Source: an uncultured Bacteroides sp. (GTDB lineage Bacteria > Bacteroidota > Bacteroidia > Bacteroidales > Bacteroidaceae). From it: 54,985 bases of DNA. Shown here piece after piece: positions 1,728-50,703 of the stretch. Positions within the stretch are counted from its first letter, which is position 1; every line of letters begins with the position of its first letter. The position numbers and the translations under genes were made by a program. Below the pieces are notes generated by a model that was not told the DNA's origin, ran no database searches, and was given only the letters and a program-made list of their open reading frames with translations. The stretch covers positions 1 through 54,985 of the forward strand of contig CAMFND010000073.1 in the NCBI GenBank assembly GCA_945965395.1. The letters are read 5' to 3'.

Positions 1728-2213
1728 ATGAAGTATTTTACACTTAAAGAATGTATTTATTCTGACACCGCTGAGAAAAAAGGTATAGACAACACGCCAA
1801 CACCTGAAATAGAAGCACACATCGTGGAATCGGTAGAAACGCTGCTGGACCCGCTGCGTGAAGCGTGGGAAACTTACTGCAAACAAAATGGTCTTGGTGT
1901 GGCAAGCATAGGCATTAGTTCCGGCTATCGTTGCCCTCAACTCAACAGGGCTGTAGGCGGGTCGACCACTTCTGCACACTGCTATGGCTATGCGTTCGAC
2001 CTGATACCGATGAACAGGAATATGCGGGAATTCAAACGGTTCTGCCGCAAGTTTCTTACCGGTAGAGCTTTCGACCAGCTGATTTCTGAGGGTGAAGACG
2101 ACAATGGTATGCCCAGCTGGATGCACGTGGGCTACAAGCATCCTGACGGAAAGCGGCAACGCGGACAATATCTCTCAATGATACACGGAAAATATTACCC
2201 GATGACGGAGTGA
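1728..2213 (+). CDS. M15-family peptidase (D-Ala-D-Ala carboxypeptidase / endolysin-like)
   Basis: Protein of 161 residues with the zinc-peptidase signature of the M15_3 group: SAHCYGYAFDL at 82-92 (zinc ligands H84 and D91) and WMHVGY at 131-136 (H133 as third ligand), plus SSGYRCPQLN at 64-73. Such enzymes cleave peptide cross-links of peptidoglycan and are common as phage or mobile-element endolysins in Bacteroides. No signal peptide or anchor is visible, so it would need a holin or lysis to reach the wall, which favours a phage-derived origin. The whole length looks intact. No other phage genes are nearby. Confidence 0.85.
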   Translation: MKYFTLKECIYSDTAEKKGIDNTPTPEIEAHIVESVETLLDPLREAWETYCKQNGLGVASIGISSGYRCPQLNRAVGGSTTSAHCYGYAFDLIPMNRNMREFKRFCRKFLTGRAFDQLISEGEDDNGMPSWMHVGYKHPDGKRQRGQYLSMIHGKYYPMTE

Positions 2214-2363
2214 AACGCGATGAAAAGCATTTAAGGACTCCATATCATGAATAATGTTGTATTGGATACCAATTGACTCTTAGCCTCTCTTTCGAAAAAA
2301 GGGTAACCAAATCGATAGAAAAGATTCAATTTCCTCAAATAAACGTCATCCGTCTACATAAGT

Positions 2364-2567
2364 TCATTCTTTAAGCTTTATTTCAACTTGTAATCCCAAC
2401 GTGTCTGCTACTGCAAGCAACGTCTCCAGCTTGGGATTACCTTGCCCGCGCTCAATCGCCACAACTGTATTTATACCTACACCTGCAAGTTCTGAGAGTT
2501 CCAGCTGGTTGATATTTAAGCCTTGGCGGCGCTCCTTGATAAATATTCCAATCTCTTTAGTATTCAC
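2364..2567 (-). CDS. HTH XRE-family regulator, HipB/Y4mF-type antitoxin
   Basis: A 67-residue helix-turn-helix protein: IKERRQGLNINQLELSELAG then GINTVVAIERGQGNPKLETL is the classic XRE/Cro fold, and the ending LGLQVEIKLKE is typical of the Y4mF/HipB antitoxin group. These normally repress their own operon together with a HipA-type kinase encoded immediately downstream. Here, about 150 bp of non-coding DNA and then the oppositely oriented M15 gene lie downstream, so no toxin partner is present. It is therefore an orphan antitoxin or a free-standing regulator. Confidence 0.8.
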   Translation of the reverse strand: MNTKEIGIFIKERRQGLNINQLELSELAGVGINTVVAIERGQGNPKLETLLAVADTLGLQVEIKLKE

Positions 2568-2700
2568 AGTGCAATGTGATTTTTATGAAATATCCGACCG
2601 TAATAACAAGCCATTATGACCAAAAGCAAGGAGATGACTTAAGAAAAGAGGTTTTCGGTCAAACCGCATACGGCTTTCAGGTAGATAAAGCGGCCTATAT

Positions 2701-2732
2701 TTTGAAGAATATAAAAAATAGCCTTATATTTG
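2701..2732 (+). promoter_or_regulatory. Promoter of the Rpn-family gene
   Basis: TTTG at 2701-2704 and TATATTTG at 2725-2732 with a 20-bp spacer, 28 bp before the ATG at 2761: a full -33/-7 Bacteroidetes promoter. Confidence 0.7.
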
Positions 2733-2760
2733 TCAGGATATACTATTAAAGATTACGGCC

Positions 2761-3720
2761 ATGAAAAATGACTACCAACGAGCCAGATATGTAAACCCGT
2801 ACACCGACTTCGGATTCAAGAAGCTGTTCGGGACTGAAATGAACAAGGAACTGCTGATTAGCTTCATCAACTCTCTTTTCAACGGGAAAGAAGTGGTGAA
2901 AGACCTGACTTACCTGAATACCGAGCACTTAGGTGGCAGGGAACTGGACAGGAAGGCCGTGTTCGATGTGTATTGTGAAAACGAAAAGGGGGAAAAGATT
3001 CTGGTAGAGATGCAGAAGGCTGAACAGCAGTTTTTCAAGGACCGGAGTCTGTATTATGCCACCTTCCCCATCAGAGAACAGGCGGAAAGAGGGGATTGGG
3101 ACTACTCACTGAAGGCTGTTTACGTGATCGGCATCCTGAACTTCAACATCGACGACGAAAACGATTCTTATTTCCATCACGAGGTACAGCTGACGGACCA
3201 GCGCACCAAAGAGGTGTTCTATGACAAACTGACCTTCATCTACCTGGAAATGCCTAAATTCAACAAGACTGAAGAGGAGCTGGACGGGATGTTCGAGAAA
3301 TGGCTCTTCGTTCTCCGCAACCTTTCACGCCTGCTGGAACGTCCGCAAGCACTGCAAGAAAGGGTATTTACCAAACTGTTTGAAGCGGCAGAAATAGCCA
3401 AATTCACCAAGACAGAATACGAAGCGTACGAAGAGAGCCTCAAAGTGTACCGTGACTGGCAAAACACCATCCGCACGGCCATCAACAAAGGACTGGAAGA
3501 AGGAAGAGAGAAAGGACTGGAAGAAGGATTGGTAAAAGGATTGGAAGAAGGATTGGTAAAAGGATTGGCGAAAGGACGTGCGGAAGGACTGGAAAAAGGA
3601 CGTGCGGAAGAAAAAGCCGCCATTGCACGCAACCTGAAATCATTAGGACTGACTACTGCACAAATTGCACAGGCTACCGGATTGACGGAGGAGGAAATCG
3701 AAAATATAGATAAGAAATAA
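2761..3720 (+). CDS. Rpn-family PD-(D/E)XK nuclease (recombination-promoting nuclease / putative transposase)
   Basis: Protein of 319 residues. The N-terminus (YVNPYTDFGFKKLFG, 10-24) and the catalytic stretch with D69 and E83-x-Q85 (FDVYCENEKGEKILVEMQK) are typical of the PD-(D/E)XK 'transposase' family in Bacteroides. Members nick or cut DNA and promote RecA-independent recombination; true transposition is not shown. Residues about 240-283 are an alternating-charge repeat (GLEEG, GLVKG, GRAEG units), likely a coiled or charged linker, followed by a small helical C-terminus (LGLTTAQIAQATGLTEEEI). It has its own promoter and terminator, so it is a free-standing unit. A decayed copy of its 3' end lies at 1331-1492. 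Confidence 0.85.
   Translation: MKNDYQRARYVNPYTDFGFKKLFGTEMNKELLISFINSLFNGKEVVKDLTYLNTEHLGGRELDRKAVFDVYCENEKGEKILVEMQKAEQQFFKDRSLYYATFPIREQAERGDWDYSLKAVYVIGILNFNIDDENDSYFHHEVQLTDQRTKEVFYDKLTFIYLEMPKFNKTEEELDGMFEKWLFVLRNLSRLLERPQALQERVFTKLFEAAEIAKFTKTEYEAYEESLKVYRDWQNTIRTAINKGLEEGREKGLEEGLVKGLEEGLVKGLAKGRAEGLEKGRAEEKAAIARNLKSLGLTTAQIAQATGLTEEEIENIDKK
3486..3612 (+). repeat. In-frame degenerate repeat in the Rpn gene
   Basis: Tandem copies of a roughly 12-24 bp unit (GGACTGGAAGAAGGA / GGATTGGTAAAAGGA) encode GLEEG/GLVKG/GLAKG blocks. The units are multiples of three, so slippage would change the linker length and leave the frame intact. Confidence 0.75.
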
Positions 3721-23485: not shown

Positions 23486-23591
23486 AAAACGCACTTACGT
23501 TTCGAACCAAACGCACTTGCGTTCCAACTCAAACGCCAAAGAGTTTTAGACAAAACGCACTTACGTTTTACATTAAACGCAAGTGCGTTTT
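23486..23591. repeat. Array A: five 17-bp near-palindromes at 22-bp period
   Basis: Copies begin (first A of AAAC) at 23487, 23509, 23531, 23553 and 23575: exactly 22 bp apart. Copies 1, 2 and 4 read AAACGCACTTRCGTTT, copy 3 is worn (AAACGCCAAAGAGTTTT), and copy 5 is AAACGCAAGTGCGTTTT. The perfect form has 7-bp arms AAACGCA / TGCGTTT around a 2-nt centre. The array lies between convergent genes (sulfatase and DUF1015). Related arrays are at 37098-37203 and 50599-50703. Confidence 0.85.
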
Positions 23592-23683
23592 CTTTTCAGA
23601 TAGTTTTCCCTCATATCCGTTCACAAAAAAGGCCCTCCCAAATGTAACTTTGAGAAGGCCCTGTATCGTTCAGAAGAAAAGTC

Positions 23684-36745: not shown

Positions 36746-37524
36746 ATAATATTTGAAATTGGAACAGACTAAATAAATCACTTTTCCCACTCCTATCAAA
36801 ATGTCACCCCACTCCCATCCTCCCTCAAACCTCTTTCTTTTCTCGCTCCATAACCTATACGCTCAAAATCTGCAAGCAGAGCCATTTAGCCAAATTCAGA
36901 AAGAAACTATTTCTCTACAAACACATACACAAAGAAAGCATAAAACATCATACTTTACATCGTTACACAAAAAATCGTACACATACAATCAAAAAGGCAC
37001 TACAAACTAATTCATCCCAACCTCTCCAATTAGGAAAAACACATCTCTACACCTCCTAACTTTCCCCAAAACTACCTTCAAAATTCCAGAAACCGCCAAA
37101 CGCAAGTACGTTTTCCCTCAAACGCAAGTACATTTTAAGTAAAACGCAAGGGCGTTTCATCTTAAACGTAAGGGCGTTTTAGTCCAAACACAAGGACATT
37201 TTTCAATCCTTATTTTCCTCTAAAATCATAAAACCTGATTTACCTGAAAATTCAGTCCAGACTGAACAAGAAGCGCTTCCAGAATCCTCCAGATACTCCC
37301 AATTTATGTACCGACAGCCCCCTTTCAGAGTACTTCTGAGAAGGGATTAACTTGCAGACTTCCTACTAAAGAAGCAAATCCACTAAAAAAATAGACAGAA
37401 ATCTGGTCCAAATTCTTCCAAAAAGTCACAATCTATTTTCTGAGAAAGAAAAAAGAACAAAGGAAAAACAGAAAAAATCCATCGAAAAGCGTATCTTTAC
37501 AATCAATTCATAAACATTTCTCTC
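36746..37524. other. Long AT-rich intergenic region
   Basis: No convincing gene. A plus-strand open frame at 36801-37010 has low-complexity content (many S, H, Q, T, K) and no family likeness, and I reject it. The region contains array B (37098-37203), a 7-bp-arm palindrome TTCAGTCCAGACTGAA at 37251-37266, and TATCTTTA at 37492-37499, a one-mismatch -7 box for the GNAT gene at 37525. I see nothing else. Confidence 0.6.
37098..37203. repeat. Array B: five 17-bp near-palindromes at 22-bp period
   Basis: Copies start at 37098, 37120, 37142, 37164 and 37186, exactly 22 bp apart: AAACGCAAGTACGTTTT, AAACGCAAGTACATTTT, AAACGCAAGGGCGTTTC, AAACGTAAGGGCGTTTT, AAACACAAGGACATTTT. The linkers are unrelated. 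The same family forms arrays A and C. Confidence 0.85.
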
Positions 37525-45305: not shown

Positions 45306-45315
45306 CCGGAAAGTA

Positions 45316-45399
45316 AACAAAGGGGTGCCCCACGGATGTGTCCGGGCTGAGATTATACCCTACGAACCTGATGCGGTTAATACCGACGAAGGGATTGTT
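45316..45399 (+). ncRNA. TPP riboswitch (THI element)
   Basis: It contains the conserved blocks in order: AGGGGTGCCC, GGGCTGAGATTATACCC, GAACCTGATGCGGTTAATACC and GAAGGGA. The outer helix P1 pairs AACAA (45316-45320) with TTGTT (45395-45399). It senses thiamine pyrophosphate and lowers expression of the thiS gene and those after it when TPP is high. A small CCCG/CGGG hairpin at 45423-45434, ahead of thiS, may be part of the expression platform. Confidence 0.95.
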
Positions 45400-45471
45400 G
45401 ATTCTGACATCTATTTCCTTTCCCCGTCTGCGGGATGCTCTCTTTGGTTTACACGCTAAAACAATATGCTT

Positions 45472-50573: not shown

Positions 50574-50598
50574 AAAGCCCTCCGGAACACTCTCTGAA

Positions 50599-50703
50599 AA
50601 ACGCCCTTACGTTTTCCCTGAAACGCAAGTACGTTTTACTTCAAACACAAGTGCGTTTTGATAGAAACACAAGGACGTTTTTCAAAAACGCAAGTGCGTT
50701 TTT
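50599..50703. repeat. Array C: five 17-bp near-palindromes at 22-bp period
   Basis: Copies start at 50599, 50621, 50643, 50665 and 50686 (spacing 22, 22, 22, 21): AAACGCCCTTACGTTTT, AAACGCAAGTACGTTTT, AAACACAAGTGCGTTTT, AAACACAAGGACGTTTT, AAACGCAAGTGCGTTTT. It lies between thiH and thiF and is followed by a terminator-like hairpin. Confidence 0.85.

What the first reader, a model, noticed from the sequence alone, without database searches (positions are those of the whole stretch)
23486..23591. A family of five-copy, 22-bp-phased palindrome arrays (array A, convergent site)
Three unlinked intergenic sites in this window each contain exactly five copies of a 17-bp near-palindrome, consensus AAACGCAAGTGCGTTTT, with first bases 22 bp apart (all four steps exactly 22 here). 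The 17-bp units are conserved while the 5-bp linkers differ, so the unit and the spacing appear to be held. 22 bp is about two DNA turns, which would put five sites on one face of the helix. This is too short and regular for CRISPR and unlike ordinary REP elements. Copies 1, 2 and 4 of array A run in the opposite orientation to copy 5. It sits between convergent gene ends (sulfatase and DUF1015). Candidate roles: a cooperative protein-binding site (nucleoid or partition-like), a multi-hairpin 3' UTR, or a mobile short repeat.
Basis: seen in the sequence. Interest (0 to 1): 0.85.

Follow-up and report, generated by a model that had tools for sequence, protein, structure and literature searches.

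The report
Phased palindrome arrays in Bacteroidota genomes
Short mirror-image DNA sites repeated at exactly 22 bases sit in dozens of gaps between genes of this gut-type bacterium, and similar arrays in distant relatives lie next to a gene for an HU-type DNA-binding protein, which suggests an undescribed chromosome-organising system.

Summary
The window's three arrays belong to a dispersed family: 52 were read in this genome (163 model matches on both strands suggest about 80). Units are AAACG-N6-CGTTT; neighbouring units are exactly 22 bp apart in 199 of 204 cases, and 190 of 192 in Bacteroides mediterraneensis. Copy number is most often 5 (4-7 here, 3-5 in other Phocaeicola read). The central six bases are species-typical. 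Arrays lie between genes, mostly at 3' ends. 36 of 52 share flanking sequence with array-bearing stretches of B. mediterraneensis; some are lost or decayed, and some are copied between loci. They are not CRISPR-like in size, lack RAYT-type transposases and match no Rfam family. Main new clue: HU-HIG (HU_rel) genes elsewhere in the phylum often have 22-bp phased repeats beside them: best repeat lag 22 in 14 of 24 loci against 15 of 510 control genes; with dyad symmetry also required, 9 of 25 against 1 of 501. Best reading: cooperative DNA-binding arrays for an HU-family or similar protein, acting in chromosome organisation. No HU-HIG gene was found beside an array in Phocaeicola, so the binder there is unproven. 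Tandem terminator and selfish repeat remain live rivals.

The parts
23486..23591 (.).
37097..37203 (.). Array B: five dyads (unit starts 37098, 37120, 37142, 37164, 37186) in a long gap between divergent genes
50598..50703 (.). Array C: five dyads (unit starts 50599, 50621, 50643, 50665, 50686) between a gene I call thiH (name recalled) and a ThiF/MoeB-like gene; absent at the same site in G043
23629..23662 (-). Terminator-like hairpin of the 'DUF1015' gene; array A lies beyond it on that side

Best explanation
Each array is a DNA-level docking site: 3-6 dyads, each binding a protein dimer through two AAACG half-sites 11 bp apart, repeated every 22 bp (about two helical turns) so that the bound proteins line up on one face and assemble cooperatively. 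The arrays occupy DNA at gene 3' ends and between convergent genes, where a large nucleoprotein complex would not block promoters, and serve as chromosome-organising or anchoring (centromere-like) sites. The candidate binder is an HU/IHF-superfamily protein of the HU-HIG (TIGR01201 HU_rel) clade: in several families outside Bacteroidales this gene carries one such array beside it, and in many Phocaeicola species the array type has multiplied over the chromosome. Shown: sequence, spacing, copy number, positions, shared sites, loss, decay and copying, and the statistical HU-HIG linkage in other families. Inferred: protein binding, cooperativity, HU-HIG as the binder in Phocaeicola, common descent of the two sets of arrays, and the chromosome-organising function.
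For: Spacing 22 in 199/204 (G000) and 190/192 (G020) neighbour pairs. Arms nearly invariant while linkers vary (the units were picked by at most one arm mismatch, so the arm figure is partly by selection). Pairing is not what is held at pair 6/11: C-G 117, T-G 66, C-A 62, T-A only 5 of 254; negative association (G000 table 119/62/66/5, Fisher 3e-6; G020 111/46/71/16, 0.07). Unit orientation is independent of transcription (96 with, 122 against). Arrays at shared sites in G000 and G020 while units are gained and lost in 22-bp steps. HU-HIG linkage: best lag 22 on the 3' side of 14 of 24 loci against 15 of 510 control genes; at least 28/50 matches in 10 of 24 against 0 of 509. Lag 22 plus dyad symmetry: 9 of 25 loci on the 3' side (L410, L412, L413, L416-L420, L426) and 2 more on the 5' side (L421, L429), against 1 of 501 control genes. 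Lag scan of whole loci: 13 of 30 HU loci against one GC-rich stretch and one run of N in 732 kb of nine of the same genomes.
Against: The three HU-HIG genes found in G000 and G020 have no adjacent array, and the only HU-HIG gene found near a Phocaeicola array held is 3.1 kb away; not all HU-HIG genes of these genomes were surveyed. Sequences beside HU-HIG genes differ from AAACG in most families. Of the 13 loci with strong lag 22, L411, L422, L424, L432 and L433 do not pass the dyad test at p < 0.01, and L415, L423, L427, L428 and L434 fail it too. The loci are not independent: five of the 24 come from one genus (g94). Many Phocaeicola arrays abut stop codons without another detected terminator. 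26 of 61 genomes of the genus have no match, so the function cannot be essential. No binding data exist.
Confidence: 0.45

Rival explanations
1. Tandem weak bidirectional terminators: each unit is a short A/U-flanked hairpin and several in a row end transcription from both sides.
For: Array ends are flanked by A on the left and T on the right (first outer base in 93 of 100 and 99 of 108 ends); on 84 of 120 facing 3' ends the array lies within 80 bp, 81 of them with no other terminator detected; RNA folding of arrays is far below shuffles (mean z -6.8 over 100 array-strand cases of G000); unit 5 of array A scores as terminator-like.
Against: Single hairpins average only about -3.7 kcal/mol against -20.3 for the 'DUF1015' terminator, and -2.4/-3.9 for a Prevotella veroralis unit. 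Pairing is not maintained by double changes. RNA hairpins need no rigid 22-bp phase. Where the array is 80 bp or more away the gene has its own terminator in 28 of 36 cases; by eye about 12 of 24 HU-HIG loci show a hairpin-plus-T terminator before the repeats. Below 45 bp there is hardly room for a terminator, so the 81 of 84 count is biased.
Confidence: 0.25
2. Selfish non-autonomous repeat: the array is a short element that spreads by copying or ectopic gene conversion and has no host function.
For: Similar arrays at unlinked sites (linker identity 23/24 for L106/L107; 20/24 for window B/L098, L088/L089 and L112/L116; mean of all comparisons 0.37) with no similarity beyond the array edges; presence/absence at shared sites (L117 site: present G000 and G024, absent G020 and G043; thiH-thiF site absent in G043); bimodal distribution in the genus.
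Against: No target duplication seen at the one empty site aligned; no Y1 transposase gene (PF01797) in 21 of 22 array-rich genomes; retention at shared sites with spacing kept; phased repeats tied to HU-HIG genes in other families.
Confidence: 0.2
3. Intrinsically curved DNA: phased A and T tracts alone are the function.
For: A and T tracts recur on average every 11 bp (inference from the base table).
Against: Tract centres alternate at about 13 and 9 bp; CG in the arms and the central bases are conserved, which curvature does not need; HU-linked repeats such as TGCGCA or CCTGCGCAGG have weak tracts. Curvature was not computed.
Confidence: 0.05

Closest known systems
REP/BIME elements with RAYT transposases (PMC3733652: passages read; rest recalled)
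   Same: Dispersed palindromic units, mostly intergenic, mostly between convergent or same-direction genes, lineage-specific sequence
   Different: No GTAG/CGTC tag, rigid 22-bp phase, 3-6 direct copies, no PF01797 gene in 21 of 22 array-rich genomes
Plasmid centromeres such as F sopC and P1 parS, and replication iterons (recalled, no call)
   Same: Several iterated or dyad sites beside the gene of the DNA-binding protein; iterons are often about 22 bp apart
   Different: Chromosomal and dispersed; ParA, ParB and Rep genes were not searched for; candidate partner is HU-like
HU-HIG / HU_rel family (PF18291, TIGR01201)
   Same: Genes next to 22-bp phased repeats in several families of the phylum
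   Different: The one search for the name HU-HIG found four papers, none on this by title; a published prediction of roles for HU-HIG proteins is recalled and was not held; in G000 and G020 the genes found lack an adjacent array
CRISPR arrays
   Same: Regular repeats with short variable stretches between them
   Different: 16-bp dyads with 6-bp linkers and few copies; cas genes were not searched for

Membership tests
REP/RAYT (BIME) | GTAG or CGTC tag at one end of the unit | tested here: not met
   base tables of units, linkers and outer flanks
REP/RAYT (BIME) | Y1 transposase (PF01797) encoded in the genome | tested here: not met
   present in 6 of 61 genomes and in 1 (G007) of the 22 array-rich ones
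REP/RAYT (BIME) | dispersed, mostly intergenic palindromes | tested here: met
CRISPR | repeats of about 23-50 bp with unique spacers of similar length (recalled definition) | tested here: not met
   16-bp units, 6-bp linkers
CRISPR | cas genes | not tested
   none searched
Intrinsic terminator | stable GC-rich hairpin followed by a U tract | tested here: inconclusive
   weak hairpins, T-rich ends
Centromere-like binding array | iterated dyads of fixed phase | tested here: met
Centromere-like binding array | located beside the gene of its binding protein | tested here: inconclusive
   phased dyads beside HU-HIG genes in 11 of 25 loci tested, but not in Phocaeicola
Centromere-like binding array | bound by that protein and needed for segregation | not testable with these tools
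   needs experiment
Rfam RNA family | match above gathering score | tested here: not met
   only a TPP riboswitch elsewhere in the window

The most novel reading that the evidence does not exclude
A phylum-wide chromosome-organising system of Bacteroidota built from an HU-HIG protein and its phased dyad array: one array beside the gene in several families, multiplied to tens of sites along the chromosome in Phocaeicola, with site sequences that change by lineage while the 22-bp phase is kept.
Probability: 0.3. Interest if true: 0.92.

Novelty: new variant of a known kind. Interest (0 to 1): 0.78.

Why it matters
If right, it gives a sequence-defined candidate for how Bacteroidota organise or anchor their chromosomes, and gives the HU-HIG family of this phylum a testable DNA target. 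Even if the arrays are terminators or selfish repeats, they are a large, rigidly phased repeat family in Phocaeicola, for which my searches of the held open library found no description, and they occupy the 3' ends of many genes.

Tried and rejected
RAYT/REP origin: rejected by the PF01797 scan. RNA pairing as the selected feature: depleted T-A pairs and no link of orientation to transcription. One cognate gene beside Phocaeicola arrays: 377 flank genes fall into 264 clusters, none shared by more than three genome groups. Target-site duplication: none seen at the L117 empty site; the thiH-thiF gap in G043 looks like a loss. Viral origin: one viral-contig hit, L069, with an array nearly identical to one of G000. 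Contig ends near arrays: 13 of the 52 arrays lie within about 700 bp of one (my count from the contig lengths); the 13 ends show mixed sequence, some are tRNA genes or simple repeats, and most matches among them fall in the arrays themselves. P. veroralis array L209 lies 209 bp from an HU-HIG gene; alone this may be chance.

Literature: no paper holds the consensus. Searches listed 2, 0, 2, 2, 10 of 68, 12 of 29, 3 and 4 papers; none of the listed titles and abstract openings describes such arrays; full texts were not read except passages of PMC3733652.

Chromosome position: 54 array stretches of G020 lean towards the terminus that I place at 2.145 Mb from GC skew (KS p 0.009); the list is not complete (133 model matches on both strands), so this is only suggestive.

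Full report
Observation. Array A is present as described: five 16-bp dyads starting at 23487, 23509, 23531, 23553 and 23575, all steps 22 bp. Arrays B (37098) and C (50599) are of the same kind; array C has one 21-bp step. The window holds 17 units with at most one arm mismatch against a Markov mean of 2.3, and 200 Markov sequences gave no pair at 22 bp.

Genome-wide family. A two-unit pattern has 73 forward and 79 reverse matches in the window's genome and none for the reversed control. A sequence-only model of 24 arrays gives 163 matches in G000 and 133 in G020, counted on both strands, that is roughly 80 and 66 arrays. I read 52 arrays of G000, the window's three included; they were taken from capped pattern listings, so they are neither complete nor random. 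Units per array: 4 in 3, 5 in 25, 6 in 20, 7 in 4, weak end units counted. Among strong neighbouring units up to 60 bp apart, 199 of 204 are exactly 22 bp apart in G000 and 190 of 192 in G020.

Anatomy. Over 254 units, picked by at most one arm mismatch, position 6 is C or T, position 11 nearly always G or A, and linkers are variable with a TANNTA tendency. Pair 6/11 is C-G 117, T-G 66, C-A 62, T-A 5: one weak half is tolerated and two are rare, the opposite of compensatory pairing (Fisher 3e-6 in G000; the same direction but 0.07 in G020). The units are therefore directional; neighbours share direction in 251 cases and differ in 140, but in same-direction gene pairs the direction does not follow transcription (96 against 122). 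Array ends carry A on the left and T on the right.

Where they lie. In G000, of 51 arrays, 19 are between convergent genes, 17 between tandem genes, 6 between divergent genes, 2 overlap a small predicted ORF and 7 lie at contig edges; in G020, of 53, 17 convergent, 27 tandem, 8 divergent, 1 overlapping (own gene caller; all gaps of the same G000 stretches: 43 convergent of 252). 3'-facing sides within 400 bp have a median distance of 45 bp (120 sides), 5'-facing sides, without that limit, 184 bp (71 sides). Of 36 3' sides with the array 80 bp or more away, 28 have a terminator in between; of 84 closer sides only 3 do, though a terminator hardly fits below 45 bp. Gene ends without an array: 53 of 116 have one. 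Array A is of both kinds: 14 bp from the sulfatase-like stop, and beyond the terminator of 'DUF1015'.

Relatives. Contig lengths identify G020 as Bacteroides mediterraneensis NZ_LT635783.1 and G024 as Phocaeicola plebeius DSM 17135. With the strict pattern 19 of 61 genomes of the genus match and 9 of 399 in a family sample. With the model the genus splits into 22 genomes with 52 or more matches, 13 with 1 to 10 and 26 with none (stricter filters and at most 65 scored candidates, so weak arrays may be missed). Array-rich species differ in the central six bases and in copy number: G002 4-5 units, G004 about 3-4, G007 3, G013 3-4 (few loci each). Patterns and model were built on AAACG arms, so constancy of the arms is partly by selection. 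Of 52 G000 arrays, 36 lie in stretches with at least 600 bp of sequence homologous to an array-bearing stretch of G020, about 21 with both sides aligned by my reading (array B with short hits on one side, and L103 and L107 rearranged); in the pairs printed many units match one to one, with whole 22-bp units gained or lost, and others are much diverged.

Loss, decay and copying. The thiH-thiF array (array C) is in G000, G024 and G020 and missing in G043: thiH stop to thiF motif is 256, 280, 281 and 133 bp. Of the other genomes with a readable gap G046 has two units there, the rest none. The L117 array is in G000 and G024 but not in G020 and G043; no target duplication is visible. At the L119 site G020 keeps two decayed units. 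Four pairs of arrays at unlinked sites of G000 share 20-23 of 24 linker bases and most centres, with no similarity beyond the array edges; a fifth pair, L093/L108, has 20 of 24 linker bases but poor centres and is not counted. So arrays are copied or converted as units. In G024 an rve-type insertion sequence sits at the end of one array.

HU-HIG link. Arrays with AAACG arms in Chryseobacterium taichungense and Hymenobacter gummosus lie 35-47 bp after an HU-HIG gene. I then fetched 30 HU-HIG loci from a phylum sample of 395 genomes, 30 of which matched, by protein and not by array. On the 3' side of 24 of them the best repeat lag between 13 and 40 is 22 in 14, two of these only just (L427, L428), against 15 of 510 control genes (Fisher 8e-14); at least 28 of 50 matches in 10 of 24 against 0 of 509. 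The loci are not independent: five of the 24 are from genus g94, others come in pairs; the 14 fall in nine genera, seven without the two marginal ones (genus labels). Over all 30 loci the lag scan finds 13; in 732 kb of nine of the same genomes it finds a run of N and a GC-rich stretch; it recovers 54 of 54 G020 stretches. A joint test of lag 22 and dyad symmetry passes 9 of 25 loci on the 3' side (L410, L412, L413, L416, L417, L418, L419, L420, L426) and L421 and L429 on the 5' side, against 1 of 501 control genes on the 3' side. The repeats of L411, L422 and L424 have the lag but not clear dyads, L432 is an AAAGCCCGCC-type repeat, L433 is weak. None of the six loci of Bacteroidales genomes (same order as the window) passes the joint test. 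Unit sequences are lineage-specific: AGACATAGTTATGTCT, AGAACACCCGTGTTCT, AAACCTGCGCAGGTTT, ACTCATTAGCATGACT and others. By eye about half of the 24 printed loci show a terminator before the repeats; in L412 and L413 the repeats follow the stop directly. Six of the proteins, scanned, are TIGR01201 HU_rel; no solved structure matches the Chryseobacterium protein.

Limits. The HU-HIG genes found in G000 (two) and G020 (one) have no adjacent array, and the only HU-HIG gene near a Phocaeicola array held lies 3.1 kb away (L147). So the link is shown for other families and inferred for Phocaeicola. That the two sets of arrays are homologous rests on geometry and on shared AAACG arms in a few genomes.

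Judgement. The likeliest reading is a cooperative protein-binding array working at the DNA level, with an HU-family protein as the leading candidate and chromosome organisation as the leading function. A tandem-terminator role and a selfish-repeat role are not excluded and may coexist with it.

Noticed in passing
window 45311-45411: TPP riboswitch upstream of genes that I take for the thiamine cluster (names recalled, ThiF/MoeB-like) containing array C; an array that ended transcription would separate the last gene from the riboswitch.
   Followed up: partly
L391 (G024:C14), about 1880-3262: Insertion sequence with rve integrase core abutting the end of an array; the same terminal sequence follows an array in viral contig L069.
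   Followed up: partly
L069: The only viral-contig hit carries an array nearly identical to one at the end of G000 contig C111 (L105), so it may be bacterial DNA.
   Followed up: no
G006: Its DUF1015-type protein is 99% identical to the window's and its thiH-type protein 95%, yet the model finds no array in this 99% complete genome; arrays may have been lost or the gene transferred.
   Followed up: partly
L417, L418, L419, L420 downstream of HU genes: TGCGCA-centred sites at 22 bp after a strong terminator in four species of genus g94; a fifth species of that genus (L415) has a different repeat there.
   Followed up: yes
window 3487-3610: 12/24-bp tandem repeat inside an ORF.
   Followed up: no
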